Source: a virus. Taken from it: 64,000 nt of DNA. Within the stretch, counting starts at the first letter, position 1; each line of letters opens with the position of its first letter. A program made the position numbers and the translations under genes. Shown piece after piece: positions 191 through 38,908 of this stretch. The notes under the pieces are model-generated. The model made no database searches and had not been told where the DNA came from. It worked only from the letters and a program-made list of their open reading frames with translations. Location of the stretch: IMG/VR virus record IMGVR_UViG_3300043540_000091, positions 1-64,000 of that record; one strand, written 5' to 3'.

Positions 191-1300
191 TCACGGCCTC
201 TGGTCCAGCATCCGCACGCGGAGCATCTTGTCCTTGATCGCTAGTAACACGCGCAGCTGCTTGACCGAGATGTGCAGCTCGTCGCGGTCGGCATGGTTGT
301 CCGAGTGACGCTCAAGCACGTTTAGGAACTCGTTCTCGAACGGGGTCAGGTTAGGAGTGCGAGGTCCGTGGATGAGGTCCCTGTCCTCGCCCGTGATCAG
401 CACGTGGGTGTCGCTCACGCGCTTGTACTGAGGCGGCACCTCGAACTGGTCCTGGTCCTTGGTCTGCTCCTGAGCCTTGCCGATGGTCTCGGTGAGCTTG
501 TTGATCAGGTCCTGCTGGGACGTGATCATCTTGCCCATCTCCTCGATGCGGATGGCAGCCTTCTCGATGCGGTAGTCGCGCTCGCGAAGCTCCATGTCTT
601 TGCCAGCAAGCTCTACCTTGTGCGCCTCGCGCAGCTGCGAGATCTCGTTCTTGCGGCGGTGTACCTGGTCGTTCAGGTCGCGGACCTCTGCCCTCAGTCG
701 CTCCACCTCCTGCTTGGCCAGGAGAAGCTCGTCGCTCGGCGTGATGCTGAGGTGCTTGAGCTTGTTCGCCCTCTTGACCACGATGGCCGTGTTCTGGACC
801 TTGGGATGAGGCTTAGGCGCGATGTAGGTCTTGACCTGGTTGTCCTTCTCAAGGATGGCCATGATCTGAGGCAGGTACTCAGCTCGGAAGTAGCGGTATT
901 CCTGACTATCGGACATGCCGACGTTTACGTACCAGGCCTTCTTGACCTTGCCAGCCACGCACAGCTGGCCGAGCCTGCTGCGAACCGTGTTGACTGCTAT
1001 GTTCACCTTGCCGCCGACTGGATCTGTCGGGACGCCGTACTTCTTGAGCAGGTCGACCGTGACGTCGGTAGAGTATCGGTACTTCTGCTTGTCCTCCACC
1101 AGCTTCTTGGCGCGGCTCACGAAGCTGCCAAGTGAGTACTCGTCCATCTTGAGCAGCACGGCTGGAACCTTGTTGGTCAGCTTGAGGATTCCCTCCTTGT
1201 CGCACAGGTCGGTCACGACCTTGCAGGCTTCCTCGCCTGTAAGTCCAACACGCTCCATCATCTGCTCGATGGTCATCTTGGCATCGCTCTGGTCGTTCAT
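191..1300 (-). CDS. Hypothetical protein with winged-helix-like N-terminus and coiled coil
   Basis: This 369-residue protein has a helix-rich, basic N-terminal half (about 1-160) that looks like tandem small helical or winged-helix modules, then a long charged coiled coil at about 190-280 (heptads such as EVERLRAEVRDLNDQV) and a polar C-terminal tail. The start is fixed by a strong Shine-Dalgarno (GGAGG) seven bases upstream. The composition would fit a DNA-binding or scaffolding role, but this is inference; no named family is recognised. It is a distal gene of the leftward operon and contains no membrane segment. Confidence 0.65.
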   Translation of the reverse strand: MNDQSDAKMTIEQMMERVGLTGEEACKVVTDLCDKEGILKLTNKVPAVLLKMDEYSLGSFVSRAKKLVEDKQKYRYSTDVTVDLLKKYGVPTDPVGGKVNIAVNTVRSRLGQLCVAGKVKKAWYVNVGMSDSQEYRYFRAEYLPQIMAILEKDNQVKTYIAPKPHPKVQNTAIVVKRANKLKHLSITPSDELLLAKQEVERLRAEVRDLNDQVHRRKNEISQLREAHKVELAGKDMELRERDYRIEKAAIRIEEMGKMITSQQDLINKLTETIGKAQEQTKDQDQFEVPPQYKRVSDTHVLITGEDRDLIHGPRTPNLTPFENEFLNVLERHSDNHADRDELHISVKQLRVLLAIKDKMLRVRMLDQRP

Positions 1301-1361
1301 GTGTCCCTCCAGGGGTAGTTATTTAGGTACAACATGAACATACTACAGCGACCGCTGGCCG

Positions 1362-1685
1362 TCAATCTTCGGTGAACAGCGTCTTCTTGAGGTTCTTGCC
1401 CGCGTCAGGGCCGAGGTCTGCCTTGATGGTCCGAGTCACGGTCACCTCCATCCTGATCTCTTCCGGCCATACCTTCACCGGCTCGTATCTGCCAAGTACA
1501 TCCAATGGCTCGACCTTGGTACTGTACGTCACGCTGGTAGCATATCCGATCAGACGACTGTTCACATAGATCCTTGCTCGTGCGCCCATGAGCATTCTCG
1601 CGGTTCTTCGCCATGCCCATGTGAACGGCACCATGCTCACAGCTGCGGCTGACAGAAGTCCTCTCAGGAACCTTCTTCGATCCAT
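1362..1685 (-). CDS. Tail-tube-like protein with Tat-like signal/anchor
   Basis: The 107-residue product starts with a twin-arginine-type leader: MDRRRFLRG followed by a hydrophobic stretch LLSAAAVSMVPFTWAW and then Arg residues. From residue 33 it resembles the phage's own tail tube protein at 35651-36127: both share GARA, VN, a central LGRY.P motif and the same spacing over about 70 residues, then this copy stops early. The start is chosen because AGGAG lies five bases before the ATG, whereas the internal ATGs have poor sites. A tube-fold domain exported to or anchored in the inner membrane is unexpected; a decoy or superinfection role is speculation. If an internal Met is used instead, it is just a short tube paralogue. 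Confidence 0.6.
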   Translation of the reverse strand: MDRRRFLRGLLSAAAVSMVPFTWAWRRTARMLMGARARIYVNSRLIGYATSVTYSTKVEPLDVLGRYEPVKVWPEEIRMEVTVTRTIKADLGPDAGKNLKKTLFTED

Positions 1686-1742
1686 GCTTCTCCTCGTAGA
1701 GCTTCAGCATCATGATCGATGCCTAAGTCAGGACGGCGGCTA

Positions 1743-2216
1743 CTAGGCATGCTCGGACGAGTCCCCAGTCGACCGGTTTAGCCGGTCGCACTCTTCCTGG
1801 GCTCTCCTCAGCATCTCGTCGTGTTCTGACTTCCACTCGACCAATGTCCTGTGATTGAAGAAAGCTACCATCCGTACATACTCGTTCTCCATGATACCAT
1901 CCGTCTCGACCAATGTCGAGGGATCATTCTTGGTCGCGTTGAACTCCTCTATCAGCTGGCGCTTGACGCGCTTGCGCATGAGAGGTAGGTCCAGCTCGTC
2001 GATGGTCCTGCCAGCCCTCATCTGCTCGGCGGCCTTCTCGGTCTCTTCCTTCCCACCGCACGCGTCGTGATTCTCGAACTCGTAAAGCTCCTGCCACTTC
2101 TCGCGCGTCACGTAGCCTATCGCGCTGTGCACTCTGTACGTTCCGAGCGGCATACCCCAGCGGTCGGTGTCCTCCGAGATTCTCGGTATGGTGCCTATCC
2201 GTATGTACTCGCTCAC
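1743..2216 (-). CDS. Hypothetical charged protein
   Basis: A 157-residue acidic, helix-rich protein without recognised domain. A GTG start at 2216 is preferred: it overlaps the stop of the upstream gene (ATGTGA arrangement) and has AGGGAG at a normal distance. Longer in-frame starts would run well into the upstream gene. Nothing in the sequence indicates a catalytic function. Confidence 0.6.
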   Translation of the reverse strand: MSEYIRIGTIPRISEDTDRWGMPLGTYRVHSAIGYVTREKWQELYEFENHDACGGKEETEKAAEQMRAGRTIDELDLPLMRKRVKRQLIEEFNATKNDPSTLVETDGIMENEYVRMVAFFNHRTLVEWKSEHDEMLRRAQEECDRLNRSTGDSSEHA

Positions 2217-2506
2217 ATGAACTCCCTGTATCCGCGCGGACACCACCTAAGCTCGAAGCGCGAGCGTTCCTTGAGCATGCCGACAGGCTTGCCCTTCATC
2301 ACGTCGAACTCGAACGTCACGCCCGTGAGCGGATCGTAGTACCACGCCTCTATGTCTGGATCGTACTTGACGGCGGTAGCTATGAGGACTCGGATGATCC
2401 ACCACACGCCGTGCTTCTTGAGCATGGCCTTGGTCATGTATCCTACCTCGACGGCCTCGCCGACCGTTGCTTCTATCCTCTTGTCCTGTCCTACTCCCCA
2501 GCCCAT
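2213..2506 (-). CDS. Hypothetical protein
   Basis: 97 residues, rich in aromatic residues in its second half, with a possible amphipathic or membrane-associated helix around residues 33-47 (GVWWIIRVLIATAV). The ATG lies inside the end of the upstream gene and has GGAGACGC before it. It belongs to the overlapping chain of small genes in the leftward operon. Function unknown. Confidence 0.6.
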   Translation of the reverse strand: MGWGVGQDKRIEATVGEAVEVGYMTKAMLKKHGVWWIIRVLIATAVKYDPDIEAWYYDPLTGVTFEFDVMKGKPVGMLKERSRFELRWCPRGYREFM

Positions 2507-2787
2507 GCGTCTCCGATCGTGAGCATGCCTACCATGTTCTGCAGGCGCTCGGTCCAGTGCTTGAATTCCTCGGGTACCTCGACCTCGTGACCGTAGACCA
2601 CGAAGACGTACCTCTGCCAGTTGACGCCGTCCTTGATGTAGGCCATCCTGTGCTTGATGGCTACACAGCGTGCGTCGAAGCCCATGTACTCGCCTTCCCT
2701 ATTGGCAGCGTCCAGGGCGATTCGCATCAGCTTCCTGTGGTCGGTGTAGTACTTATCTTCCACCGCGAACTCATATAGAGCTATCAT
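2491..2787 (-). CDS. Hypothetical protein
   Basis: 98 residues with mixed alpha/beta character. Both ends overlap neighbours (16-17 bases each), the hallmark of this operon. No motif is recognised. Confidence 0.6.
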   Translation of the reverse strand: MIALYEFAVEDKYYTDHRKLMRIALDAANREGEYMGFDARCVAIKHRMAYIKDGVNWQRYVFVVYGHEVEVPEEFKHWTERLQNMVGMLTIGDAWAGE

Positions 2788-3187
2788 CTTCGTCCTTCTG
2801 CTTGAGCATGTATTCTATCGGAAACTGTCCCTTGCCCACGTTGGCGCGTCTGAACGCTGCGATGCGTGCGTCGCGAAGACATTCGAGCAGCTCGATCTGC
2901 CACGGTTGAGGTTCCACTCCGAAGTGTACCTTCAGCCACAGCTTCATGTTCTCTCTGCTCGTGAGCACGTACGCTGGGATCTTCGCGTTACGCAGCTTGG
3001 CCCTCGCCTTGTCACGGGCTGGGTTACGGCGATCGGCGTAATGTGCAGCGCCCAGCATGACCATCAAGATGGCGGATATCGAGAATACTATGACCATGGC
3101 TATACCGTCCACGCTCCACGGAGCGGCCTTGGGAGCTTCCTTGGCTACCGGCAGATATGGTACTCCTGCCCACGACTGAGTGTTCAT
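2771..3187 (-). CDS. Single-pass membrane protein, unknown
   Basis: 138 residues. A Pro/Ala-rich N-terminus precedes one clear transmembrane helix at about 29-48 (MVIVFSISAILMVMLGAA), followed by a basic soluble domain. By the positive-inside rule the C-terminal part is probably cytoplasmic. Overlaps the next gene start by 17 bases. The role is unknown. Confidence 0.65.
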   Translation of the reverse strand: MNTQSWAGVPYLPVAKEAPKAAPWSVDGIAMVIVFSISAILMVMLGAAHYADRRNPARDKARAKLRNAKIPAYVLTSRENMKLWLKVHFGVEPQPWQIELLECLRDARIAAFRRANVGKGQFPIEYMLKQKDEDDSSI

Positions 3188-3405
3188 CGAATGACACCTC
3201 TCTCGTAGAGCTTGTGCATGATCTTGGTTGTCAGCGCGAACTTAACCGAGTCTATCACCTGAGCGCCCTTCATGTCGTACGCCGACACGTAGAAGCTATC
3301 AGCGTACTCGAGGATCTTGGCTGCGCGATCGGCCAACAGCTCGATGTTGTCGATCTCGTGAGGATGAACGAGCAGCTGATCGTACCGTGCCTTGCGCCTG
3401 ATCAT
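3184..3405 (-). CDS. Hypothetical small protein
   Basis: 73 residues, basic at both ends, soluble. It overlaps both neighbours by four bases (ATGA junctions). No recognised family. Confidence 0.6.
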   Translation of the reverse strand: MIRRKARYDQLLVHPHEIDNIELLADRAAKILEYADSFYVSAYDMKGAQVIDSVKFALTTKIMHKLYERGVIR

Positions 3406-3731
3406 TGCTTGATCTCGCTGTCAGCCTTAGTGTCGAACAGTACCAGCTCGACCTTCTGGCGCAGCACCTGCAGCTCGGCGCTCGACACGAACCGAGCTAC
3501 CTTCTCCATCAGCTGTACTGCACGGTCTGCTTCTGCGGTCGCATGGCTGGTGTTGGTGGAGGCTGGGTAATGCTTGGTGAGGTAGCACTTGCTGCCAGGT
3601 CCGAGCACGGGATCTCCATCGATCTGACTGAATCGCCAGCCGGTGTTCTTCTCGAGGTACCTGATCGTATCAGGCGCTGCGCAACCACCAGGCATCATGA
3701 ACGTGATGTGACACTCGTAGTAAGGTTTCAT
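3402..3731 (-). CDS. Hypothetical protein, possible 2H-like fold
   Basis: 109 residues. The start at 3731 forms an ATGA overlap with the upstream stop, so longer in-frame starts are rejected. It opens with MKPYYECHITF, containing a His-x-Thr motif as in 2H phosphoesterases, and has a conserved-looking GPGSKCYLTKHYPAS segment. A second His-x-Thr/Ser is not obvious, so an enzymatic call is not made. Similar small proteins occur in other phages, from memory. Confidence 0.55.
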   Translation of the reverse strand: MKPYYECHITFMMPGGCAAPDTIRYLEKNTGWRFSQIDGDPVLGPGSKCYLTKHYPASTNTSHATAEADRAVQLMEKVARFVSSAELQVLRQKVELVLFDTKADSEIKQ

Positions 3732-4045
3732 GTGCATGGCTCCCATCCGCAGTTGCGAAGACAGTCCGCGTCCTTGCGTGGCAGCATAAGCTTGCTCCAC
3801 TTGGGCAGGTCTGATTTCCTGATGTCGAACGTCTGCATGTCGGCACCTGAGAACTGGCCGTAGGGTCTGCGCGAGCGCTCACTGATCTTCTTGTTCTTGA
3901 ACGGCACCATCCATGACTTGGTGAAGCCCTGGTTCCACCAGTAGCCCGTGACCTTGAGATGATCTCCCATGTCCATCACGTACTCGACCTCCAGCGCAAC
4001 GTCCATGAACTTCTCGTGCTTTATGAAGTCGTACTTGTCGATCAT
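3728..4045 (-). CDS. Hypothetical protein
   Basis: 105 residues, with an aromatic central part (GYWWNQGFTKSWMVPF) and a C-terminal Cys-containing tail. Starts with an ATGA-type overlap with the upstream gene. No family recognised. Confidence 0.6.
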   Translation of the reverse strand: MIDKYDFIKHEKFMDVALEVEYVMDMGDHLKVTGYWWNQGFTKSWMVPFKNKKISERSRRPYGQFSGADMQTFDIRKSDLPKWSKLMLPRKDADCLRNCGWEPCT

Positions 4046-4656: not shown

Positions 4657-5512
4657 ATGAAGTGCCCATGCGGTTCCGAGCAGTACACGAAGCGGGTACT
4701 TCCGTCCTCGCTCGAACAACTACCAACCTATTCCTCGTTATGAGTGCAAGGTCTGTCACAAGACCTTTTCTCGCCAAACCACGGCTCATACCTTCCGGCA
4801 AAAACGCCCGGACCTCAACCAAGAAATCCTGAAATGGTACTCGTCCAATGCCACGCAGCGACGGATGGCAAAGGTCATGGGCTGTAACCGGAAAACCGTG
4901 ATTCGTAAATTCCTGTTCATGGCGTGGCTTGCCCGTCAGGAGCATGAACGTCGCATACGATCTGGCGAACTGAAAACCGGCTACGTTCAGTTTGATGAGA
5001 TGGAAACCTTTGAACATACACGATTAAAACCGCTTTCAATCGCTCTGGCAGTCAGAGCCAAGACAGGCGAGATCATCGAAGCTCAGGTTGCTGAAATGAA
5101 TTGCCACGGCAAAGCCGCCAGCGTTTCTCAATTCAAATACGGCTGGCGTGCTGATCACCGAGCCGTGGCTAGAGAAGACGTATTGCGGCAAGTCAAACTT
5201 GTTGCCCGTGACCAGATCACGATTGTCTCGGACGCCAAGCGATCCTATCCCGCCGAAGTAAAGCGTTGGGTTCCGCACGCCGAGTTTCAGGCTGTCACAA
5301 GCCGTGTCGGGCGACGGAAGTTAAGCCAGCAAGCCAATCGCCGGAACCAGGATGATGCAATGTTTGCCTTGAACCTAGCTTGTGCCAAGATCAGGCATGA
5401 CATGAGCCGGATGGCGAGGAAGTCTTGTGTGACGACGAAGAAAGCCGAGCGGCTACAGGCGCACCTAGACCTCTACATCGCCTTCAATAACGGGTATCAG
5501 TTGGCGGCTTAG
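4657..5512 (+). pseudogene. IS1-like transposase with frameshift near 4690
   Basis: The N-terminus starts at ATG 4657 with MKCPCGSEQYTK (first Cys pair of a zinc ribbon). The rest continues in another frame from about 4690 with GYFRPRSN, then the second Cys pair ECKVCHKTFS, a helix-turn-helix around GCNRKTVIRKF and a DDE-type core. Acidic candidates are FDEME and VSDAKRSY; the usual third Glu before the terminal helix is not evident, with NQDDAMFALN in that region. The C-terminus (RKSCVTTKKAERL..HLDLYI.FNN) matches the conserved helix of IS1-like enzymes. Joining the frames needs a +1 shift, unlike the -1 programmed shift of IS1, so the copy is probably inactive or has a sequencing indel. Confidence 0.75.
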
Positions 5513-6312: not shown

Positions 6313-9300
6313 CTATATCAGGGAGATGGTGACATCGGTCGTCGGATCGACCACGCGAGCGCGTTCGTCGGCGGCGATCGGTATCAGATCGTTCGACGCA
6401 TCGTACGTCGGGTACGTGACCGCCACGCTGACCACTCCAGGTATCGAACCAGCGGCTGTGACCATTCTGCTTATCGATACGCTCTGACCAACGTCCAGTC
6501 CGTTAACGTATCCAGCGACCGCGCTCTTCACGCGATCTCTGATCTCTGTGAAAGGCACTCCGGACTTGGTGCGGATGCTGAACGAAGCCGTCACGCGGCG
6601 GATGATGGCAGGCTTGATGCCGATGGCCGTACCAGCAGCACGCCAGCCTGGGTAGTTGATGCGATCTGAAGGATCTCCGTAGATGACCTTGTTCAGCTCA
6701 GCGATCAGGCCGACGTAGTACTTGTACGCGTCGATACCGCTGTGGATGGTAGCAGCCGACGTAGTTGCTCCAGCGTCGAAGTTGAGCTTCGACTTGCCGA
6801 TCAGCACAGCGCCCAGCGAGCTTGAGAGCTTCTCTGTAAGCTCAGGACTGTCGAGCACGACCGTGGCATCCGTTCCAGCGCCAGGACCAACTGTGAAGAT
6901 GCGCTTCCATAAACTGACAGGCTCCGATTCCTCGACGTTGAACTGACTTAACTCTCCGCCAAGAATGACCGGCGAACCGGACGGGTTGGGTATAGCCGCA
7001 GTCCAGATGCGAGTAGCTGTCGGGAACGAGTAGCCAACGCCTTGAGATTCATCGACCACGATGTAGCGTCCCACGTTCTGTGCGCCGAGACTGTCTGTCG
7101 TGATCACCAAGGTGTCACCAGGCATGACGGACTCATGGTCGTAGAAGCGCATGTTGTTCTGATTACCAAGCACGATGACTTCCTCAGCTGCGTTCTCATG
7201 CTCGATCCAGAAGCTGTCGTTTCCGAAGATGCGCACTACCTGGAACACGCCTTGGTTTGCCTTGTCGAACTCGTCGTGTCTCCACCATGCAGGACTTACG
7301 TCAGGCTGATGGTTCTGGTTACCGTTCGAGAGGCTGGTGTAGCTGAGGCCGTTGTACGACACGCGTGCGCTGATGGCATACGTGGTGCCGGACGAGTACA
7401 GAGCTTCGACCACGTTGTTCAGTCGAACCCAGTCGCCTTCCTTGACGCCGTTGGAGATGAGGTTCATGCTAGGACCACTGATGCCGATGATGGCCACGAA
7501 GTTGCCCTGGCGCTCAATCTTGATCTCGGTGTTAGCGGTGTGGCTGACGCTTCTGATCGTCTGGAACGTACCAGATCCGGAGACTATCTCCGCACCGTCT
7601 GCATGGAGAGTGATCGCAGTGGTCTCGTCGAGCTGGATGAGCTTGTTCTGGCGAACGGTGTTCTGAAGATTTACCCACTGATCCTTGATCAAGCCCTGTC
7701 TGATCTCGTAGGGAACCGTCACTGCTCCGAGCTTGCTTCCGATGAGAGAGCCTGAGCCGGATAGAGCAAGCGACAGACTATTGGCCGTGCCGCCTGATAC
7801 CTGGATATAGCCAGATCCACCGAAGGTCTGCGTAGAGATCTGCAGTTCTCGACCATAGCGAGATAGCTGGACCGCGCCCACGTTGGTCACGCCAGTGACC
7901 ACGAGCTTGTTCCAGAATCTGACCAGCTGCTCGTTACTCTGAGCGACGAGTCTGATCTCCTCGCCGATGTCAGGAGCTGATACCCACTGCTTCTTGGCAA
8001 TGAACTGAGGCAGAGATGCGAGAGATGACAGGTTGTTGGACAAGACTCCGTTCTCTCCATCGTACATCATGTCCATCGGAGTAGAGCCATTGACTGTACC
8101 GCCAGGGCTGAGAGTAGCCGTGGCCGTTGCGAGCGACGGCAGCTGGATCTCAGATACGATCGCGCCGATGCCTTGGTCGAGGTAGGTATCCAGCACGATG
8201 TAAGATCCATTGTACGCTGCAGCGCCTCCGGACATACCGCTGATCACGATGCTGGAACCAGCAGGTATCGTGGCTGTGGTGCGGAGCTTGGCGCGGCGCG
8301 ACGTCATGAACGTGTAGAAGTTGGTGACCGTGGTCGAGATGTAGTTCGTACCAAGGTCGTTGTCCTCGGTCGATCGAGTGATGGTAGCGCTCGGCGCACC
8401 GTTACCGACAGACGCAGTGAGCTTGTCAGACATGTTGGCAGAGATGTAGTCGACGACTTCCTGAGCTGTGGTGGAGACCGTGGCGAACTGAAGGTTCTCG
8501 TTGGTCGATCCACTGAGAGATCTCGCCATGCTGCCGGTCGGGACATAGCGAGTGGCAGTTCCGTTTGTTCCAGACGCCGATCCGCTCAGCGAGTAGTAGT
8601 ACTTGAACTGAGTAGACGTGGGAGTCGAGTCGACGATGAACTTACCACCAAGGTCGAGAATCGTGACGGACCAGTAGGTCGGGCTGATGTCGGGTTGGTG
8701 ACCGACGTTACCCGACTGCAGTGACTGATAGTTCTGTCCGCTGTAGCTTACGAGATCGCCCACGGCGTACGTCGTAGCTGGAACGTAAGCATCCAGAGTA
8801 ACTCCGGCTACCTGCACGATGTCTCCAGGGTTCAGGCCGTGAGACGTGGCGGTGTTGGCCGTCATGAGAGTGCCTGCCTTCGAGATCGAGCTGACGGACA
8901 CCGTCGTTCCAGCGCTGTATGACTGGAAGTCGAACCGACCAGTGCCGGACGATGCCGCAGATCCAGACTTGATGAACTGGAACTGGTTAGCTCCGAGAAC
9001 CGCAGACACTGCGGCCAAGCCATCGTACGGGCTTCCAGCTCCGCTGATCAGGACCACGTCGCTGACGATGAGGTTGTGAGCGGCTGACGTGGTGATGGTG
9101 ACCGTGTTGGACACCTGCGACGAGTTGACGAGAGTGCCACCAGGAGTACCACTCGGAGTAGCGACCGTGAACTGGTTGGAGTTCAGGACGGTGACGGTGT
9201 ATGTCGTGTTGAGCGGGAACGTGGTTCCGCCATCGTACGAGGCCGTGTTCCAGAAGCCAACGCGCTGGCCGGTCGAGAGACCGTGTCCCGCAGCTGTCAC

Positions 9301-12300
9301 CGTGATGGTTCCAGCCTGGTTGAGCATGTTGGTGAAGCTGACGTTGTCGACCACGTAGGTACCAGCAGGAACCTCTACGCTGAACGAGTGCAGGGACACC
9401 GATATCACTCGGCCCTTGTACCCGCTGTTGGCAGGCAGGAAGCTTGTGTTCGCGGCCAGGAACATTATGTCACCTACGTGCACATCTGCTCCGAGGTTGT
9501 TGAACTTGGCTTCCGTTCCTGATCTCCAGGTGTACGTCACCACATCCTTGCCGCCGGTCGTCGTCTTGCTCACGGTGAAGGAGCTTGTGTAGTCCCAGCT
9601 TGGAGTGCGAACGGCAGGGCATGGAAGAAAGATCTTGGCGTCGATGACCTCGGACAGCTCGAAGCGGTGCGAGATGGCCGTCTGCGTGGCGGTGTCAGGA
9701 TACACGAAGCCGACGCGGACTCTGTTGCCTGACGGACCAAAGTCTGCGCTCTTGATCAGAACATCGTACGTTCCATCGGTCAGGTGAGTTCTCGCCTGTC
9801 TGTGGATCTTGAAGTTCGAGAAGTCGAAGTCGTAGAACGAGGCCGGATCGTTCAGTGCGAGGCTGGACTCAGCATCGCTCGCTGAGAAGTCCTGGTTGGA
9901 CGGAGTAGAGTGGCTCGAGACTGTCAGCTTGCGAGATACCGGCAAGGTATATGACTGAGTCTCTGCGTTACCGTCGACGACCGCGTTGGTGGTGTCAGCC
10001 GAGTAGAACTTGTACGGGCTGCGCAGGAAGAACCTGTCGCCTGCCTGCATCAACGAGTCAGGAGACTGCATGTAGATGGGCGGCTTCATGGACATGCGCT
10101 GGAGCGACGTGTCGTATCCCGTGATGAGCGAGCGTTCTCCGGCGTTAGAGTCGATGACCTGCTTGACTGCAGACGTGTCGTACTTGTTGAGAATCTCGAC
10201 GAAGTCACCGTCGTGACCACCGATGGCCTCGAAGTCAGGAAGGGTGAACACGGTGTCAGTGATAGCAAGTCCAAGGGTACTGTGAGTGAAGCTGGGTACT
10301 CCAGCCTCGGTGTCGGTCGCGGCCACGTTGCCGTAGTGGGCAGGAGTGTTCACGATGGCTGCGCCCAGAGGAAGCTGCAGAGCAGATCCGCCTTGGTCAG
10401 CCGCTGCGAAGTAGATCTCTCCGTCGTCAGAAAATGTCTTGGTAGAGATACGCACCTTAGATCCAACGATCTGAGCATCGACGCCTACCAGCGAGGTCTG
10501 GATCGTCTGAAGGAAGCTGACCAACGGCTGGGCAGCGAAGTCGATCATCTGCATCGGAGCTTGGCTGCGAACGATGACCAGACGGTCCGTGATCGGAGTG
10601 AAGCTGATGTTCAGGTTCGACCGGCTCGTGGTACCATCGTCCACTATGATCTGTCCTGTCTGAACAGACTGGATGCGCCAGAAACCTTGGTTGAAGATTA
10701 AGGGAGCTGGATCGGTTGGGTTTGCCCACACGATAAGCCAGTCACCTTCCTTAATATCGTCGAAGCCTTCCGGAACCAGCGCAGGGCTCGTAGCGGAGAT
10801 CGTCAGAAGAGTTCCGGTCTTGCTGAATGTGACTTGAGAGTTAGACTTAAGTCCGGTCTGAACAGGAAGAGATCCACCATCAGTCAGAAGCCATACGCGG
10901 CCTTGCTGCGTGGGACCGTTGGGGATGTCAGAGGTCAACGCAGATCCGCGAGTGTACTGGCTACCCATGGTGACCTTATCACCGGTAGCTAGCGCATTCG
11001 TGAATCCGACCTGTCCCGTCTGCTTGTTGAGCGTGTAGTCGGGCGATTGGCCGACGCTGTAAAGAGTATCAGTCGTGCTGAAGATCTGGTTCTTGAGAGT
11101 ACCGCCGGTGATCTCGAGCTTGGCCTTGTTGTCACTGCCTCGAGCGGACTGCAGCTGGATGATGTCGCCGAGAACCGTAGCGCTCACACCAGGCATGAGG
11201 TTGTTAATGACCTCTGCCCATATGGAGATGTCCGTCAATGATGACACGGTAGCGCCTGGATCTATGGCCTGGAAGTCGGACAGGTTGAAGACCGTCGTGA
11301 CCTCTGGGGTACCATCGACTCTGTACGACAATGTATCGCCGTCAGAGATGGCCGGTGACCACGAAGACTTCGCGCGAGTCTGAACATACGCGATCAGACC
11401 GTCCTGTTGCAGAGGCAGGTCGTTCTTGTACATGCGGCTGGTTACAGCCTTGGTCGTGGGGAATCCTAGAGCGTCGTTCGCATTCGTGCCTGTAGAAGGC
11501 ACCTTCACTTGGATGTCGTTCTTCGAGCGGTCACGAGGATAGATGACGAGGTATGTTCCGTCGCTGTTGGTCGTGCATAGGAAGTTGACGTTGGGATCTC
11601 CGTTGATTGATGCAGCGATCTCGTATGCCGTAGCGCTGGACGGGACCTTGAAGTCTGCGTCGACGAACTGGTGAACCGTCTCGACTCCAGCGATCTCGAC
11701 CGCGATGAAGGACAGGTTCTGGATCGGCCACGGACCAGCCACGTTGTTTCGTATGAGAGCCTGCGCGATCGGCTTCTGGCGAAGCTGGACCTCACGCTCG
11801 CCGCCTACCGCACTGTCGACGACGGTCTCGAACGGAGCGCCGACGAAGTTGGGCTCGTACCCTTGACCATCGTCGAACACCAGGTCGGTCGTGTTGTCAG
11901 CATAACGGATCACGTTCGAGGACTGAACCTTCTTGAGTTCGTCCTTGGCCACGACGTCCTTTGAAGCCGTCTCGATAGCCTGTTCGGTACCCTTGGACTT
12001 TGCAGACTCGTAGTCCTTGATGCGCTGACGGATGTCATCGTCGGTGTCAGCTTCTCGACCATTGTTGAAGCCGAGGCTGTTGTAGACCGTTCCGGTGAAC
12101 GCTACGCCGATGATCTCCTTGATAGCTCCGCGAGATACGTTGCCGATGGTTCCTGGCACCTGACAGCGTACTGGCACGTTCGTGACGGTTACCTCACCGT
12201 CGATGATAGTGGCCGCCGAGGTCGTAACGAAGGCGACGGCAGTGATCGACGCGCCCTGAGCGGTCTGAATCGTAGTGTTTGACGGGATGAAGCGGTTACC

Positions 12301-12864
12301 ACCTTGCGCGAGCGTAACTTCCTCGCCGAGGTTATGGAACTTGGTAGTGGGACTTGTTCCAGCAAGCGTGATGGACCAGTAAGATCCGCCAGCTTCGGCC
12401 TGGACCGAGGTATAGGTCAGAGGGCCTTCGACATTGGCCGTGCCGCGACCGATGTAAACCTTGCCGCCAGCCTGGGTAAACTTGGAAGCGTCTGCGACGT
12501 AGATCTTCAGAGATCCTGCGACCGGTGCCGGTTGACCAGCGTACACGCGGGAGGAGACCTTGGTAAACGAGGTGTCTGAGATGTCAACTCGACCGGTCGA
12601 CGCGAGCGCGGGAAGGATAGGGACGTTGGCGTCACGGGCCTGACGCTGAAGCTGTTCGCCCTCGGCGCGGTCTGCGCTCATGGCGTCGATCATGGTGATG
12701 AGGTTGGCTTCCGACTTGAAGAGTTCCTGAGCCATGGCCTGAACGAGCTGCGCGAGGTTTGAACTCTCGTTGAGGTCGAGGTCCTTGCGCAAACGCGCAC
12801 GGATACCGTCGATGAAGTCTCCAGCTATCTGTTCCTTACTGCGTAGGTCTGGTACCTTAGCCAT
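6313..12864 (-). CDS. Giant baseplate J-like protein
   Basis: 2183 residues, far longer than the usual 300-650 of baseplate J proteins. The conserved core is split: the N-terminal part has the hallmark FNNGREADTDDDIRQRIKDY (about 267-286), and the last 100 residues carry the C-terminal J domain with PGVVSVAV near the end. The roughly 1700 residues between are beta-rich, Thr/Ser/Gly-rich repeats. Two modules at about 1365-1398 and 1825-1858 share YA, V.Y.G..Y.SL..GN..HQPD.SP.WW, typical of carbohydrate-binding modules of the CBM5/12 type. It would form the wedge connecting the baseplate to receptor-binding parts, with built-in glycan contacts. The ATG has no strong Shine-Dalgarno. Confidence 0.85.
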   Translation of the reverse strand: MAKVPDLRSKEQIAGDFIDGIRARLRKDLDLNESSNLAQLVQAMAQELFKSEANLITMIDAMSADRAEGEQLQRQARDANVPILPALASTGRVDISDTSFTKVSSRVYAGQPAPVAGSLKIYVADASKFTQAGGKVYIGRGTANVEGPLTYTSVQAEAGGSYWSITLAGTSPTTKFHNLGEEVTLAQGGNRFIPSNTTIQTAQGASITAVAFVTTSAATIIDGEVTVTNVPVRCQVPGTIGNVSRGAIKEIIGVAFTGTVYNSLGFNNGREADTDDDIRQRIKDYESAKSKGTEQAIETASKDVVAKDELKKVQSSNVIRYADNTTDLVFDDGQGYEPNFVGAPFETVVDSAVGGEREVQLRQKPIAQALIRNNVAGPWPIQNLSFIAVEIAGVETVHQFVDADFKVPSSATAYEIAASINGDPNVNFLCTTNSDGTYLVIYPRDRSKNDIQVKVPSTGTNANDALGFPTTKAVTSRMYKNDLPLQQDGLIAYVQTRAKSSWSPAISDGDTLSYRVDGTPEVTTVFNLSDFQAIDPGATVSSLTDISIWAEVINNLMPGVSATVLGDIIQLQSARGSDNKAKLEITGGTLKNQIFSTTDTLYSVGQSPDYTLNKQTGQVGFTNALATGDKVTMGSQYTRGSALTSDIPNGPTQQGRVWLLTDGGSLPVQTGLKSNSQVTFSKTGTLLTISATSPALVPEGFDDIKEGDWLIVWANPTDPAPLIFNQGFWRIQSVQTGQIIVDDGTTSRSNLNISFTPITDRLVIVRSQAPMQMIDFAAQPLVSFLQTIQTSLVGVDAQIVGSKVRISTKTFSDDGEIYFAAADQGGSALQLPLGAAIVNTPAHYGNVAATDTEAGVPSFTHSTLGLAITDTVFTLPDFEAIGGHDGDFVEILNKYDTSAVKQVIDSNAGERSLITGYDTSLQRMSMKPPIYMQSPDSLMQAGDRFFLRSPYKFYSADTTNAVVDGNAETQSYTLPVSRKLTVSSHSTPSNQDFSASDAESSLALNDPASFYDFDFSNFKIHRQARTHLTDGTYDVLIKSADFGPSGNRVRVGFVYPDTATQTAISHRFELSEVIDAKIFLPCPAVRTPSWDYTSSFTVSKTTTGGKDVVTYTWRSGTEAKFNNLGADVHVGDIMFLAANTSFLPANSGYKGRVISVSLHSFSVEVPAGTYVVDNVSFTNMLNQAGTITVTAAGHGLSTGQRVGFWNTASYDGGTTFPLNTTYTVTVLNSNQFTVATPSGTPGGTLVNSSQVSNTVTITTSAAHNLIVSDVVLISGAGSPYDGLAAVSAVLGANQFQFIKSGSAASSGTGRFDFQSYSAGTTVSVSSISKAGTLMTANTATSHGLNPGDIVQVAGVTLDAYVPATTYAVGDLVSYSGQNYQSLQSGNVGHQPDISPTYWSVTILDLGGKFIVDSTPTSTQFKYYYSLSGSASGTNGTATRYVPTGSMARSLSGSTNENLQFATVSTTAQEVVDYISANMSDKLTASVGNGAPSATITRSTEDNDLGTNYISTTVTNFYTFMTSRRAKLRTTATIPAGSSIVISGMSGGAAAYNGSYIVLDTYLDQGIGAIVSEIQLPSLATATATLSPGGTVNGSTPMDMMYDGENGVLSNNLSSLASLPQFIAKKQWVSAPDIGEEIRLVAQSNEQLVRFWNKLVVTGVTNVGAVQLSRYGRELQISTQTFGGSGYIQVSGGTANSLSLALSGSGSLIGSKLGAVTVPYEIRQGLIKDQWVNLQNTVRQNKLIQLDETTAITLHADGAEIVSGSGTFQTIRSVSHTANTEIKIERQGNFVAIIGISGPSMNLISNGVKEGDWVRLNNVVEALYSSGTTYAISARVSYNGLSYTSLSNGNQNHQPDVSPAWWRHDEFDKANQGVFQVVRIFGNDSFWIEHENAAEEVIVLGNQNNMRFYDHESVMPGDTLVITTDSLGAQNVGRYIVVDESQGVGYSFPTATRIWTAAIPNPSGSPVILGGELSQFNVEESEPVSLWKRIFTVGPGAGTDATVVLDSPELTEKLSSSLGAVLIGKSKLNFDAGATTSAATIHSGIDAYKYYVGLIAELNKVIYGDPSDRINYPGWRAAGTAIGIKPAIIRRVTASFSIRTKSGVPFTEIRDRVKSAVAGYVNGLDVGQSVSISRMVTAAGSIPGVVSVAVTYPTYDASNDLIPIAADERARVVDPTTDVTISLI

Positions 12865-12900: not shown

Positions 12901-15477
12901 TCATCTGGGTATCTCCGCCTGCACCGGCAAGCTCAGCTGAGTGTTCTTGATACCCAGCAATAGAGATACTACCACAGCGCCTCCAGTTATCGTCACGTCC
13001 CCTGCCAATACACCAGCAAACCGAGGATCGGCGTCGAAGGCTCGCGCGAGCGATGCTAGGATCGACTTGGCCGACACGTCCGAAAGGGCCATGCCGGCGT
13101 CCACGGGGTTACCGAAGGAAGGGTTCTGCAGCAGCTCGTTGGTCTTGGTGTTGATGATCATCATGGCTGCCTGGATCAGATTCGTCAGTCCATACGCTAA
13201 CTTGATGTCACCGCCGCCTGTCAAGATCCAGTCGCCGGAAGAGTCCTGCAGGAAGTCGACCTTGGCCGTGCGCACGATGGGATCAAGCTCATTGATCTCA
13301 GGCGACGTCTTGAACGGGGTATTGATCAGAGGTGCATTAGACGAAGGTATTGCTATCAGCATGTCACTGTTGACCGTGTTGGGCATGGAAGTGTGTATCC
13401 TCGCGTTCTGGCTGGGCTTGTACGCCGTCAGTGGCACCGGCGAGTTGGAAGCCTCGAACGTAATGATGGTCTCGACCGACGACACGATGTCGATCGACCT
13501 GACCTTGCGCACCGTTGCCTCGATGGTATCAGACTTCACGCGCACGACCTGACCGATGTACAGGTACTGAGCGTCGGCCACGGTGAGGGTGTCGCCGCCG
13601 GACGATGCTGTCACAGCTATGTCGTATCCTACCTGGTCGACGTACGGTGCCTTGAGCCCGTTCAGGGCGGCGATCTCGATCCATCGCTCAGGAGCGCCAA
13701 GGTACTGAGTAGCGAGCTGCTCGAGCGTGCCGCCCTCAGGGAACGGAACGAAGAATCGGCTCAGGTTGGCGTTGCTGAAGTTCAGGCCAGAAGCGATGGC
13801 GTAGTCCGCGTAGAACCGGTAGTAGTCCTCTCGGTCGTTGCCGTCAGACTGGTCGAGCAGGGCGGCAAGGCTGTCCATCTGCTTGATGATGTCGTTCATG
13901 TTGTTGAGAAGGACGATGTCGTCGACGGTCAACTTCTTGTATGTGTTCTTCGGCGGAGCTAGGCCAAGGACTGCGTTGTAGGACGCAGATCCACCGCCGA
14001 GAGCTTCCGACACGTCTCGTGCGAAGTTGGCGACCGTAGTACGTCTCTGGATCACGTCGTCAGCGTTCATGGACATCACGCCTTCCGTGATGCTATCGAG
14101 CTGGTTGACGATCTCTCCAGGCAGGTTCATGTCGTCGATCGGGAAGTTCTGGAACACGTCAGGGTGATCGGCTGGGTTCTCGAAGAGCGCCTTGAGCGGA
14201 TCTGCGCTGTCGCCTGCCTGCTGATACTGCTCGGCCTGTCCAGATGACAGCTTATCGGTCGCGGACGTGTTCAGCGCGGACTGAGCCTTGCCTTGCGCCG
14301 TGAGACCGCCGATCAGCCCGATGCCTGCGACGGTAGCCGCCACTCTCTGCATGGACGACTTGTTGTCGATGAAGTACTGCTTGAACGACTCCTGCATCGC
14401 CTTCGTCGTGCTGCCGGAGAACGCGAAGTCGTACATGTCCTTGCGAAGACCTTGGAGATCCTTCGCCATCAGAGCTATCTCGCCGACTGGTCTGATGAAG
14501 GAATCGTTGATATCACTTCTGATACCAGCAAGGACTCTATGAGCTGCAGCTATAGTCGTGCGAGCCTGACGGATGCCGTTCAGGATGTTCGACAGCGTGT
14601 TGGTGACGGACCTTGAGGCGGACGGATCTGGTAGGCGCTTAGCTCCGCCTGGTACGGTAGGCAGACGTCTGAACGCGTTCAGGTTGATGGAGTACTGGTA
14701 CTCGTTCGTACCAGCCGACTTGGTGACGGAATAACTGGTCAAGCTGCATGCGTAGTACTTCTGATCCTTGTGCATCAGGAAGTACAAGCGCCAGCTTCTG
14801 TTCTCCTTCAGCTTCTTACCAGCAAGGTAATAGTCCAGGAATCGTTCGAGGTCATGGATCGATTCATACCCAGTGTGCAGCGTGTTGATCTCAGAGATCT
14901 TGTAGTTAAGAGGACCTTCGGTGCTATCAGATCCGCCGCTGAACGCTCTCACGGTTCTGTTGACCTGGTTCGCAGTGGCGTACGCGCTCTTGATCGTGTT
15001 CTGGAAGGCGTACTCGAGAGAGCGCTGCCAGTCTGGGCTCGCCGTGCCAGAGTCCTTGCCAGGAGTCTTGGTTATCACGTTCGTTCCTGTAGTACCGGCG
15101 ATGGAGATGGGACGGAACGGAGCGCCGTTGTGAGTCTCGACGATACCCTTCATGGTAGCTTCCATGACGGAAGCAGCTGGAACGGAGATGCTTATGTTCT
15201 GAGGAGCGAGAGGGAATGTGAACTCTGCCACGCGGGTATTAGTCATCTCGTCCATGATCCACAGCTTGTACGGATAACGCTGGTTGAACCGCGCCTTGTC
15301 TATCGCCGTGAAGCGGAAGAACAGATCGAACTGCTCGAGCTTCTTGTACTTCGCAGCAGACGAAGCTACCGCAGACAGCGGAGACTGTCCGACCGGCGCG
15401 ACGGTCAACGGTTCGTTGGCTATCTCGGCTACGTCAGCCAACGACTTGGTGCCAAAGGGTGAGGGAAAGTCGCTCAT
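12901..15477 (-). CDS. Baseplate protein with LysM-like and gp25-like domains
   Basis: 858 residues. The N-terminal third resembles tail proteins that precede LysM modules; a LysM-like segment lies around 578-610 (GGTLEQLATQYLGAPERWIE). The last 150 residues match the gp25/XkdS-type wedge domain: GDWILTGGGDIKLAYGLTN, then an NTKTNEL..NPSFGN motif. In most phages these are separate proteins, so this is a fusion that would tie the hub-side LysM domain to the wedge. It sits between spike-region genes and baseplate J, as expected. The central section (280-560) is helical and unassigned. Confidence 0.8.
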   Translation of the reverse strand: MSDFPSPFGTKSLADVAEIANEPLTVAPVGQSPLSAVASSAAKYKKLEQFDLFFRFTAIDKARFNQRYPYKLWIMDEMTNTRVAEFTFPLAPQNISISVPAASVMEATMKGIVETHNGAPFRPISIAGTTGTNVITKTPGKDSGTASPDWQRSLEYAFQNTIKSAYATANQVNRTVRAFSGGSDSTEGPLNYKISEINTLHTGYESIHDLERFLDYYLAGKKLKENRSWRLYFLMHKDQKYYACSLTSYSVTKSAGTNEYQYSINLNAFRRLPTVPGGAKRLPDPSASRSVTNTLSNILNGIRQARTTIAAAHRVLAGIRSDINDSFIRPVGEIALMAKDLQGLRKDMYDFAFSGSTTKAMQESFKQYFIDNKSSMQRVAATVAGIGLIGGLTAQGKAQSALNTSATDKLSSGQAEQYQQAGDSADPLKALFENPADHPDVFQNFPIDDMNLPGEIVNQLDSITEGVMSMNADDVIQRRTTVANFARDVSEALGGGSASYNAVLGLAPPKNTYKKLTVDDIVLLNNMNDIIKQMDSLAALLDQSDGNDREDYYRFYADYAIASGLNFSNANLSRFFVPFPEGGTLEQLATQYLGAPERWIEIAALNGLKAPYVDQVGYDIAVTASSGGDTLTVADAQYLYIGQVVRVKSDTIEATVRKVRSIDIVSSVETIITFEASNSPVPLTAYKPSQNARIHTSMPNTVNSDMLIAIPSSNAPLINTPFKTSPEINELDPIVRTAKVDFLQDSSGDWILTGGGDIKLAYGLTNLIQAAMMIINTKTNELLQNPSFGNPVDAGMALSDVSAKSILASLARAFDADPRFAGVLAGDVTITGGAVVVSLLLGIKNTQLSLPVQAEIPR

Positions 15478-34398: not shown

Positions 34399-35058
34399 AT
34401 GAAGAAGATCTTGGCAATCGTACTGACGCTCACGCTGGCAGGGTGTCCTGGCCGCAAGGAGACGGTGACGATCTATGACGGCACGAACGGTGCTCCTGGC
34501 GCTGACGGAACGAATGGAAACGATGGAGCCTCGTGCTCGGCGACTCAACTGCCCGAAGGCGTGCGTATCACATGCGGCAGTAGCGTTGCCTACGTGTATA
34601 ACGGCACGAACGGCACGAACGGGACCAACGGAACGAACGGCACGTCGTGCAGCATCTCGAACGCCAACGGCGGAGCGATGATCACATGCGGCGGTACCAG
34701 CCAGATGATCTACGACGGAAGAGACGGAGCGGTCGGTCCTGCCGGTCCCGCCGGACCGCAAGGCCAGCCAGGTCAGAATGCTCTCGCGAACGCGATCGGT
34801 ATCGAGGGATACATCTATCTGTGCGGAATCAACTTCAGTAACGACGAGATCTTCCTGCGACTCACGGACGGAAAGATCCTTGCACTGTACGACGGTGGAG
34901 CTAACCAGGACCGTCTCGTACTTCTTGCGCCTGGTAACTACATCACGACCGACGACAATAACCAGAACCAAGCATGCCACTTCTCCGTGTCGAGCGACGC
35001 ACGACCGAAGGTCACGAGCGCATCGGGATGGCCTGCTTCCACAGGATTGGTGCAGTAA
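34399..35058 (+). CDS. Lipoprotein with collagen-like repeats
   Basis: 219 residues. The signal peptide MKKILAIVLTLTLAGC ends in a lipobox (LAG-Cys16). The mature part alternates Gly-x-x repeats (GTNGTNGTNGTNGT and GPAGPAGPQGQPG) with Cys-containing motifs (ITCG twice), then a globular domain. Such lipoproteins belong to Gram-negative bacterial surfaces and look host-derived; on a phage this could change the host surface, for example to block superinfection, or act as an outer-membrane spanin. Neither is shown. AGGAGAGG lies seven bases upstream. Confidence 0.75.
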   Translation: MKKILAIVLTLTLAGCPGRKETVTIYDGTNGAPGADGTNGNDGASCSATQLPEGVRITCGSSVAYVYNGTNGTNGTNGTNGTSCSISNANGGAMITCGGTSQMIYDGRDGAVGPAGPAGPQGQPGQNALANAIGIEGYIYLCGINFSNDEIFLRLTDGKILALYDGGANQDRLVLLAPGNYITTDDNNQNQACHFSVSSDARPKVTSASGWPASTGLVQ

Positions 35059-35650: not shown

Positions 35651-36127
35651 TTAGGTGCCATCGTCCAAGTTGGCGGAGCTTCCACCCTCGTCGTCTCCGC
35701 CATCGCGTATGCCGAACTCGTCCTCACCACGGATGCCGATGATGTCAATGCGGATGTCCGAGACGCCGCGAGCAGCGACGCCTGACGACCAGCCCTGAAC
35801 GCGACAGCCGACTGCGGTGAAGATGGTCTTGTTCGTCTGACGATCCAAGATCGCAATCGAGAAGTCTTCTTCAGACAGTAGGTTCTTCAACAGCGTAGCA
35901 TTGGCGACCTTGTAAGGACCAGCGTCAACGACACGGTATCCGGTCAGAGACAACTGCACCGGTTCCTGAGTCGTTGGGATGATCTCTGCGGGGTTGTAGC
36001 GCCCAAGGATGAACGCCGGGTCTTTACCCTGACGAATGGACCAAGTACATTGGCTGAACAAACCGACGGGGTTCCCGTTCACCAGAACCTTCGCTCGCGC
36101 ACCTGTTAAGATCTTTGCCTTTGCCAT
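35651..36127 (-). CDS. Tail tube protein
   Basis: 158 residues. Lies just after the sheath gene, as in most myoviruses, and has the beta-rich composition and GARAKVLVNGNPVGLFS start of a tube monomer, with an acidic Gly/Asp tail. A truncated homologue is encoded at 1362-1685. The start has no strong Shine-Dalgarno but lies 12 bases after the sheath stop. Confidence 0.8.
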   Translation of the reverse strand: MAKAKILTGARAKVLVNGNPVGLFSQCTWSIRQGKDPAFILGRYNPAEIIPTTQEPVQLSLTGYRVVDAGPYKVANATLLKNLLSEEDFSIAILDRQTNKTIFTAVGCRVQGWSSGVAARGVSDIRIDIIGIRGEDEFGIRDGGDDEGGSSANLDDGT

Positions 36128-36139
36128 TTCAGTCTCCCA

Positions 36140-38908
36140 TTACTGCTGAGTGGCCGTCTGCTCTACCTGGCTGGCCAGGAGAGAGATCGGGACGAAGTAG
36201 ATCAGACCGGCCAGCTTGATCTCGCAAGAGATTACCAGGGCGCCGCCCTGCAGATTCGCAGTGGCGTTCTTGTAACCTTTCGGAGCATCGTCGGAAGCGG
36301 CGATCCAGCGCAGGCGCTTGAAGTTGAACATCTGGGCTTCCAGGATGCTCAGAGCAGCTGCTGCGGTGATCTCCGCGACAGACTTACCGACCACCAAGCG
36401 ATCGAACTGATCAATCAAGGTGAGCGTGATCAAGTCGGAAACATACACGGCCTGAAGGCTGTTGTACACGAAGTTGTTGTCCACAGAGTAGGTCGTCTGG
36501 TCCGATACCCAACGGAATCCGCCGGTCGGAACCTTCTCGAGGAATAGCAAGCCTGCCTTGAGAGCATCCTTGCGGTCACCAGGAGATGACGGGTCCCATC
36601 CATCCACCGCGCCGATGCCGCCGCAGTTCGCGAACTTCTTGACGATGCCCTTGTATCCAGCGGCAGCGGACATACCAGCAGCATCGACAGCGGACATCCA
36701 CGGTTGGAACATCTTGTTGTTGCCCTGCGAGTCCTGAGCCTTGAACGGCTGGAATGCGAGTCCGATGCGGTACGCTGCCAAGATACCGGCCTCTTCTTTA
36801 CAAGCGGCATACGGAGCTTGGATCGAGCAGATACCTTGACGATTCGCACGCATCTCGATCTGGCTCATCTTGTTGATGTGCGACTTGAGATACTCGTTCA
36901 CGGCGTCGACGGTGTACGTCGAGCTTGACTCGGTCTCTTCCAGAGCGATGTCCTGATCGGCGTCGACAGACACCAGAGGAACGATGAAGTTCGTGGTGAG
37001 CTTCTCGCAGGCGTCGATGGCCGTGGTGAACGCGGCGGACGAGGTTCCGTTCTTAGCTCCATTCGCCAAGAACTGAGCGTTGTCCATTGCTTCAGGCAAG
37101 CCCGACTGCTCGACAGTCCAGCCAACTAAACCATCTGCGTTGACAGCTGACGACCAGGAGTTTGCATCTGCCTTGATGCGAGCGTTCTTATGAGAAGCGA
37201 GACCAGAGGCGAGGTAGGTGTTCTCGTCAAGAGCCGAGGGAGCTACGGCGTTGAAGCGAGCCGACGTCACCTGAGCGGACCAACCGGTCTGCGAGCTGAT
37301 GTAGTTCGCCAAGTCAGCCATGATCTTGAACTGCTTGTAGGTGCAGCTAAAGATGATGTTTGCGTCGACCTTGAAGTCGATCTGAGTCGGACCAACCACG
37401 ATGCTCGCGTTGTCGGAGATACAACCGACCTCGAGGATAACGTCGCCGCCTGCCTTGTAAGCGTTCGACACGTTGCCCTTGGCGATAGTCATCTGGTTGA
37501 CATACTCAGCGCCGCTGATCAAGCGACTGTTGGAGAGTCCCATGTCGTTTCCACCGGCATCCAACCACACTGCGCTGACATCGCCCTCGATGGACAGCGT
37601 CTTGCCAGTTCCGGTCTTCTGAGCGGCCATCACGACCAACGGTTCAGATCCAGACGAATAAGCATGAAAAGCGGTACCAGTGCCTGACGAACCTTCGCTT
37701 ACGCGAGTGGCTGACAGGGTAGTAGCCGTTGAAGCCGTGATCTGATAGAATCCAGGCTGAACGGTTCCGAAGGCCGATGCGATGGCCATCATGTCGCCAG
37801 CTTTAGGATTGGCGTTCCAAGACTTGCTCGGAGGAGTTTGGATCTGGATGTTTGAACCGTCGTTCAAGAGGATCGAGTAGGTCCCGAACACATCCTGCAT
37901 AGATTGACGAGCGTCACCCGACACGTTCTTGACTTCGATCTGACTGTAGAGGACCAGGTCATTCAGGTCAGAAGAAGCCGATCCGGATGCTGCCACGAGA
38001 GCGGCAGTCGACGAGATCCTCTTAAGGGTGAGGACAGCCGACGTGATCGTGTTCACCACAGACTCAACGACGTATGTACCGACGTTAGCATGAGCGTTTC
38101 CAGAGATGGCCGAGTTCTGAGCAGCGCCGTAGTCACCGTTTGCGGGGATGACTGCGGTGTCACCGATGACCGGAGCGTTGGCCCACTGACTTCCAGACTG
38201 GAGAGTCACGGTGAGAGTATCCGCATCCACGACAGCTGCAGTCAAGCTCAGGCCGGAGGACGGGATGACAAGCTTGCGGTTACCGCCGTTTGCTTGGATT
38301 CCAAGAGAGATGGATTCCAGCGCAGCGACGAGAGCGTCCGGAGCTTGCTTGGGAGTGATGGTCACGTTCAGCTTGCTTCCGCCGTTTGCACGAAGAGCGA
38401 GCGTGGTCGATCCAGTCAAGCGAGGAGCGTACGTGAACAAGCTGGTAGTCGGAGCTATCTCGGCTTGCGAGACGTCAGACTTATAGGTGATGAGGTTACC
38501 AGGAGCGCCCTGGCGCTTAGCCTTAGCAGAAGCGTACTCGGGCTGGCCCTTCTTATCCAAGGACAGAGCAGCGGAGGCGGCGCTCGACATGTTGGTCTTG
38601 ATCATGCGGACCAAGGTAACACCGCCCAAGATGTTAGGATCGTTGGCGGCTGAGATCACCTTTGCGAACGCGTCAACCAGGCGGCCAGAGCCGTACTTGG
38701 CGACAACGCGACCGTATTGGTCGGGAGTATATGCGACCTGGGACAGGTCAGACTCATCAAGGAAGCCAGGACCTTCGTCCGCTTCGCCGATAAGAGTAAC
38801 CACACCAGCCGAGGCTGAGTTCCCTTGCCCTGACTGAACGGTCAGCGACACATATGTGCCAGGATCGATCAGCGTGATACCGTCTTGTGTAGTATAAGCC
38901 TGAGCCAT
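36140..38908 (-). CDS. Tail sheath protein
   Basis: 922 residues, larger than the usual 400-700. The N-terminus (GITLIDPGTYVSLTV) and the C-terminal region conserved in contractile sheaths (RIGLAFQPF, NNFVYNSLQAVYVSDLITLTLIDQ, LKAGLLFLEK) are present. The middle (about 170-560) holds extra beta domains, likely exposed on the tail surface. GGAGG lies before the ATG. It forms the contracting cylinder around the tube. Confidence 0.9.
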   Translation of the reverse strand: MAQAYTTQDGITLIDPGTYVSLTVQSGQGNSASAGVVTLIGEADEGPGFLDESDLSQVAYTPDQYGRVVAKYGSGRLVDAFAKVISAANDPNILGGVTLVRMIKTNMSSAASAALSLDKKGQPEYASAKAKRQGAPGNLITYKSDVSQAEIAPTTSLFTYAPRLTGSTTLALRANGGSKLNVTITPKQAPDALVAALESISLGIQANGGNRKLVIPSSGLSLTAAVVDADTLTVTLQSGSQWANAPVIGDTAVIPANGDYGAAQNSAISGNAHANVGTYVVESVVNTITSAVLTLKRISSTAALVAASGSASSDLNDLVLYSQIEVKNVSGDARQSMQDVFGTYSILLNDGSNIQIQTPPSKSWNANPKAGDMMAIASAFGTVQPGFYQITASTATTLSATRVSEGSSGTGTAFHAYSSGSEPLVVMAAQKTGTGKTLSIEGDVSAVWLDAGGNDMGLSNSRLISGAEYVNQMTIAKGNVSNAYKAGGDVILEVGCISDNASIVVGPTQIDFKVDANIIFSCTYKQFKIMADLANYISSQTGWSAQVTSARFNAVAPSALDENTYLASGLASHKNARIKADANSWSSAVNADGLVGWTVEQSGLPEAMDNAQFLANGAKNGTSSAAFTTAIDACEKLTTNFIVPLVSVDADQDIALEETESSSTYTVDAVNEYLKSHINKMSQIEMRANRQGICSIQAPYAACKEEAGILAAYRIGLAFQPFKAQDSQGNNKMFQPWMSAVDAAGMSAAAGYKGIVKKFANCGGIGAVDGWDPSSPGDRKDALKAGLLFLEKVPTGGFRWVSDQTTYSVDNNFVYNSLQAVYVSDLITLTLIDQFDRLVVGKSVAEITAAAALSILEAQMFNFKRLRWIAASDDAPKGYKNATANLQGGALVISCEIKLAGLIYFVPISLLASQVEQTATQQ

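What the first reader, a model, noticed from the sequence alone, without database searches (positions are those of the whole stretch)
1362..1685. A truncated tail-tube paralogue carrying a twin-arginine leader
The gene fuses a Tat-like signal (RRRFLRG plus hydrophobic stretch) to a domain matching the phage's own tail tube protein: GARA, VN, LGRY.P and the same spacing. It is expressed from a small-gene operon, not from the tail module. An envelope-located tube mimic is not a known phage strategy; it might cap incoming tubes, poison assembly or act at the membrane.
Basis: partly seen in the sequence, partly recalled or inferred. Interest (0 to 1): 0.75.

Follow-up and report, generated by a model that had tools for sequence, protein, structure and literature searches.

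The report
Export-tagged half copy of tail tube
This phage carries, besides its normal tail-tube gene, a small extra gene that joins an export-type leader to only the first half of the tube protein; a distant relative keeps the same odd gene in the same place, so it is probably a working protein aimed at the cell envelope, perhaps to block rival phages, but what it does is untested.

Summary
Window 1362-1685 (-) encodes 107 aa: a twin-arginine-type leader (MDRRRFLRG + hydrophobic stretch) followed by about 80 residues homologous to the N-terminal half of the phage's own tail tube (35651-36127; 33.8 bits against a tube profile, best of 20,000 shuffles 9.5). The tube identification is solid (beside the sheath gene; profile matches the phage 812 tube). 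A strong Shine-Dalgarno precedes the leader's ATG. The decisive new evidence is a second copy in another phage contig (IMGVR_UViG_3300028800_000093, 109 aa, 38% identical): same leader, same half domain, same place downstream of the J-like baseplate gene, unrelated neighbour genes. The twin arginines are kept through synonymous codon changes. In 19 related phage genomes the Pfam Tat profile (E <= 1) hits only these two genes. The retained part corresponds to the ring-to-ring contact region of known tubes; the second half is absent in both. So this is not a tube subunit and unlikely to be a chance ORF. Function is inference: an envelope-located tube-end binder for superinfection exclusion is my leading guess (about 0.35). 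The half domain did not fold confidently in AlphaFold, and Tat export is undemonstrated.

The parts
1362..1685 (-). Tat-type leader + half tail tube gene, 107 aa
1690..1695 (-). Shine-Dalgarno GAGGAG, 4 nt before ATG 1685
   Evidence: sequence shows directly
1614..1685 (-). leader, residues 1-24 (twin-arginine motif RRRFLRG at 1659-1679, then LLSAAAVSMVPFTWA)
   Evidence: conserved in orthologue; synonymous codon changes at R3, R4, F6, R8
1365..1604 (-). tube-like half domain, residues 28-107; equivalent to tube residues about 3-87
35651..36127 (-). the phage's own tail tube protein (158 aa), the paralogue
   Evidence: adjacent to sheath
36140..38908 (-). tail sheath (922 aa)
   Evidence: phrog_279 E 3.6e-19; Mx1 sheath E 1e-131
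6313..12864 (-). baseplate J-like protein (2183 aa), the conserved gene upstream of the cassette
   Evidence: PF04865 E 1.4e-9; synteny
191..4045 (-). small-gene cassette that holds the gene
   Evidence: only 3728-4045 and a piece near 2861-2998 have homologues in relative G004

Best explanation
An accessory phage gene made by duplication of the phage's own tail-tube gene, cut back to the N-terminal half (N-loop, beta1, beta2, beta2-beta3 loop, up to the middle helix) and joined to a twin-arginine-type leader. Shown here: homology, leader, ribosome site, conservation in a second phage at the same genomic place. Inferred: the leader puts the half-tube in or across the inner membrane. There it would use its ring-to-ring contact surface to bind the end of an incoming tube of a related phage (or stray tube subunits) and stop DNA delivery, i.e. 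superinfection exclusion by a piece of self tube.
For: Homology. Both known members fall with tubes, not with the baseplate tube-like paralogues, and group together at 94/94 in a tree. Orthologue with same leader and a similar cut. Protein-level selection in the leader: codon-position matches 12/20/10 of 27, 8 of 13 identical residues with different codons. In 19 related genomes, Pfam Tat profile hits at E <= 1 only at these two genes. The loss of the second half in both, with retention of LGRYxP (6 of 11 loop residues equal to tube consensus in each), fits an inter-ring binder: the beta2-beta3 loop and N-loop are the main inter-ring contacts in known tubes (PMC8718954). Sparse presence among relatives and a variable cassette fit an accessory function. 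Precedents for envelope-located phage proteins acting on incoming phage: T4 Spackle gp61.3 (PMC7650644), Ltp of TP-J34 (PMC3952083), P22 SieA (PMC10883804).
Against: No expression, localisation or infection data. Tat scores are below curated cut-offs and TIGR01409 is inconsistent. No conserved cleavage site; basic residues on both sides of the hydrophobic stretch leave topology open. Tat moves folded proteins, yet the half domain did not fold confidently alone and has no structural match. Only two members are known. The beta2-beta3 assignment is by analogy, not superposition.
Confidence: 0.35

Rival explanations
1. Membrane-tethered but cytoplasm-facing regulator: the leader only anchors, and the half-tube sequesters free tube subunits or tube ends, delaying or poisoning tail assembly (of self, for timing, or of a co-infecting phage).
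For: Half domain keeps the polymerisation region and lacks the barrel half, the make-up of a dominant negative. Blocking tail assembly is an established strategy (Tab PMC10884400; Tai PMC11364771). No cleavage site conserved.
Against: An ordinary TM anchor would not need conserved twin arginines. Tab is linked to the tape measure, and no tube-derived inhibitor turned up in the papers searched.
Confidence: 0.22
2. Minor virion or delivery component: a tube-tip piece with a membrane-inserting N-terminus that extends the tube into the inner membrane during DNA delivery.
For: Lies directly beyond the J-like baseplate gene on the same strand, where relatives encode further tail genes, including a tube-like paralogue.
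Against: Absent from most near-complete relatives with the same tail. Half domain cannot close a hexameric barrel by itself (inference from the known fold). Neighbours are unrelated small genes, not tail genes.
Confidence: 0.13
3. Decoy for host immunity that senses tube proteins (as DSR2 does): a half-tube that occupies the sensor at the membrane without triggering it.
For: DSR2 recognises tail tube proteins and phages encode inhibitors of it (PMC10981675, PMC11087589).
Against: The leader has no clear role against a cytoplasmic sensor; host and its defences unknown; no PADLOC match.
Confidence: 0.1
4. Relic: a duplicated tube fragment fused by chance to a leader-like frame, without function.
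For: Truncated, divergent, found in only two phages; no confident fold.
Against: Two diverged lineages keep leader, length, reading frame, ribosome site and protein-level constraint.
Confidence: 0.12

Closest known systems
Phage major tail tube proteins (phage 812 ORF50 tube; this phage's own 35651-36127)
   Same: N-terminal half homologous, including GARA, VNG-type turn and LGRYxP loop
   Different: Lacks the second half of the beta-sandwich; has an export-type leader; not next to the sheath gene
T4 Spackle gp61.3 (PMC7650644)
   Same: Small phage protein with an N-terminal export signal thought to act on tail parts of incoming phage in the periplasm
   Different: Own novel fold with cleaved signal; targets the gp5 lysozyme domain; not derived from a tail protein
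Ltp superinfection-exclusion lipoprotein of TP-J34 (PMC3952083)
   Same: Envelope-anchored phage protein that blocks DNA injection; its cited target is the tape measure protein
   Different: Lipoprotein; not a tail paralogue
Tab and Tai tail-assembly inhibitors (PMC10884400, PMC11364771)
   Same: Mobile-element proteins that block tail formation
   Different: Not described there as tube-derived or exported; Tab is linked to the tape measure protein
Baseplate tube-like paralogue of this phage group (e.g. Mx1 WNM70276.1; G004 14658-15113)
   Same: Second tube-like protein encoded downstream of the J-like gene
   Different: About 150 aa, two-halved, no leader; separate clade from tubes and from this gene

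Membership tests
Major tail tube protein | Sequence homology to tubes | tested here: met
Major tail tube protein | Complete beta-sandwich with strands lining the lumen (second half present) | tested here: not met
   ends at the residue equivalent to tube 87 of 158; orthologue equally short
Major tail tube protein | Gene next to the sheath gene | tested here: not met
   that place is held by 35651-36127
Tat substrate | Twin-arginine motif followed by hydrophobic stretch near the N-terminus | tested here: met
   RRRFLRG and RRGFIRG in the two members; PF10518 17.8 and 21.7 bits, the only hits at E <= 1 in 19 genomes
Tat substrate | Score over curated cut-off of Tat profiles | tested here: not met
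   PF10518 cut-off 22.7; TIGR01409 15.9 against 16.7, and not reported in the six-frame search
Tat substrate | Signal peptidase site (A-x-A) | tested here: inconclusive
   no conserved A-x-A; TWA in one member only; an uncleaved anchor is possible
Tat substrate | Export dependent on the Tat translocase | not testable with these tools
   needs reporter fusions
Superinfection-exclusion protein | Accessory, unevenly distributed gene | tested here: met
   found in 2 phages; absent from most large relatives
Superinfection-exclusion protein | Envelope location | tested here: inconclusive
   predicted by leader only
Superinfection-exclusion protein | Blocks a second phage | not testable with these tools
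   needs plating assays

The most novel reading that the evidence does not exclude
A phage exports a half copy of its own tail tube to the cell envelope as a self-derived decoy or cap that stops tubes of related phages; exclusion by a fragment of the injection device itself, routed through Tat.
Probability: 0.3. Interest if true: 0.85.

Novelty: new variant of a known kind. Interest (0 to 1): 0.62.

Why it matters
If it acts on incoming tubes, it would show that phages turn a fragment of their own injection tube into an envelope-based block, a simple self-versus-self exclusion rule and a source of tube-targeting inhibitors of contractile systems. Even without that, a conserved Tat-type leader on a virion-protein fragment is an arrangement that I did not find described in the papers searched, and it gives a clear, cheap test.

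Tried and rejected
Close relatives of the gene by peptide patterns in viral contigs and genomes: none beyond the one orthologue; none in 50,697 phage records. Relatives of the neighbouring genes 191-1300 and 1743-2246: none. Idea that the gene is the baseplate tube-like paralogue moved or shortened: rejected, it groups with tubes. Idea of a hidden C-terminal half elsewhere in the record: the tube profile hits nothing else significant. Idea of an internal start without leader: contradicted by ribosome sites and codon pattern in both members. Foldseek with the half-domain model: nothing, low-confidence model. Rfam near the gene: nothing. Promoter-like sites: no more than chance. Defence library: nothing for the gene.

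Full report
Observation. Window 1362-1685 on the minus strand is an ATG-initiated ORF of 107 aa with GAGGAG four bases before the ATG and better codon-usage score than any overlapping frame. Residues 28-107 align with residues 3-87 of the 158-aa protein at 35651-36127 (32%, pairwise E 4e-12). In the whole 138,678-bp virus record the only matches are itself and that protein. A profile from 11 tubes scores it 33.8 bits, against 9.5 for the best of 20,000 shuffles.

Is 35651-36127 the tail tube? Yes: it lies beside a 922-aa sheath (phrog_279 E 3.6e-19; Mx1 sheath). A profile of its family matches the solved phage 812 tail tube (E 6e-8), and its model (pLDDT 69.4) has phage 812, monocin and other contractile-system tubes as best matches.

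Leader. MDRRRFLRGLLSAAAVSMVPFTWA has the twin-arginine pattern. Pfam TAT_signal gives 16.3 bits on the protein and NCBIfam TIGR01409 15.9 bits, each under the curated cut-off. In a six-frame search of 19 related phage records the Pfam profile hits, at E up to 1, only this gene (8.8e-4) and its orthologue (2.3e-5). TIGR01409 in the same kind of search did not report them, so the profile evidence is good but not uniform. A motif scan of 11,424 frames found five candidates, two of them these genes.

Orthologue. Among 20 further relatives reached through the tube, one (IMGVR_UViG_3300028800_000093, 65,369 bp, tube 85% identical) carries MNTINRRGFIRGMLGLAAMAAFPFTWTAKKATKVFTGARAKVYINGQLIGTF...PLNVLGRYEPIEM..., 109 aa. 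It keeps RRxFxRG, the hydrophobic stretch, PFTW, GARA, LIG and LxVLGRYEP, and ends at a similar point. It has GGAGG three bases before its ATG. In the leader, matches at codon positions 1, 2, 3 are 12, 20, 10 of 27; the two arginines are encoded CGA AGA in one and CGT CGT in the other. Protein-level constraint on the leader is the simplest reading. Divergence is large, so this is a count and not a rate test.

Place. The two phages are syntenic from the J-like baseplate gene onward, and in both the gene lies about 3-5 kb beyond that gene on the same strand, among small genes that are otherwise unrelated. In other relatives this interval is short or filled differently and is followed by a roughly 740-aa tail protein, a tube-like paralogue of about 150 aa and a large fibre-like protein. 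Both contigs end near the gene, so what follows it is unknown; the window's record may lack some 15 kb compared with relatives of 155-160 kb.

Origin. In a tree of N-terminal halves the two proteins group together (94/94) on the tube side, well apart from the baseplate paralogues (100/100). Branches are long and the exact point of duplication is not resolved.

Structure. AlphaFold with 30 rows gives the half domain pLDDT 51.7 and pTM 0.32, with strands at the positions where the tube has them, and no structural match. This neither shows nor excludes a tube-like fold. In known tubes the beta2-beta3 loop and N-loop carry the ring-to-ring contacts, and the inner sheet closes the barrel (PMC8718954). 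By sequence register the retained, most tube-like stretch (PxxxLGRYxP, 6 of 11 residues equal to the consensus in each member) lies in that loop; this is inference, not superposition.

Mechanism. Steps shown: a translated-looking gene, homology, leader type, conservation. Steps inferred: envelope location; binding to tube ends or subunits; benefit as exclusion of related phages. Envelope-located phage proteins that act on incoming phage exist (Spackle; Ltp), as do tail-assembly blockers (Tab, Tai) and immunity triggered by tube proteins (DSR2), but the searches found no description of an exported fragment of the phage's own tube. I put exclusion at about 0.35, a membrane-tethered assembly inhibitor at 0.22, and lower values on a virion part, an immune decoy and a relic.

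Verdict. As a kind, it would be a new variant of envelope-located phage interference; function is open.

Noticed in passing
relatives: G004 14658-15113, G014 53102-53569, G017 45580-46068, G019 83065-83511, Mx1 138748-139170: A second, two-halved tube-like protein (about 150 aa) is conserved after a roughly 740-aa tail protein; in many relatives it lies just beyond the J-like gene. Not found in the window's record, which may be incomplete.
   Followed up: partly
G000 record 127829-128128 (outside window); relative in G004 7909-8289: 99-aa protein in the fibre region with a tube-N-terminus-like stretch (TGANTIVLMNGQPV); another possible half-tube without leader.
   Followed up: no
window 4865-5512 (+): Weak match to IS1-family transposase (NCBIfam E 0.01), between the J-like gene and the small-gene cassette.
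   Followed up: partly
window 6313-12864 (-): J-like baseplate protein contains a carbohydrate-binding module match (CBM_5_12, two stretches).
   Followed up: no
window 34399-35058 and 34974-35579 (+): Lipoprotein-like collagen-repeat protein followed by a protein with a signal-peptide-like start, next to the tube gene; a similar pair occurs in relative G016 (17401-18610).
   Followed up: no
window 12901-15477 (-): Weak match to a putative tail tube initiator family (PF23980, E 3.7e-4, below cut-off).
   Followed up: no
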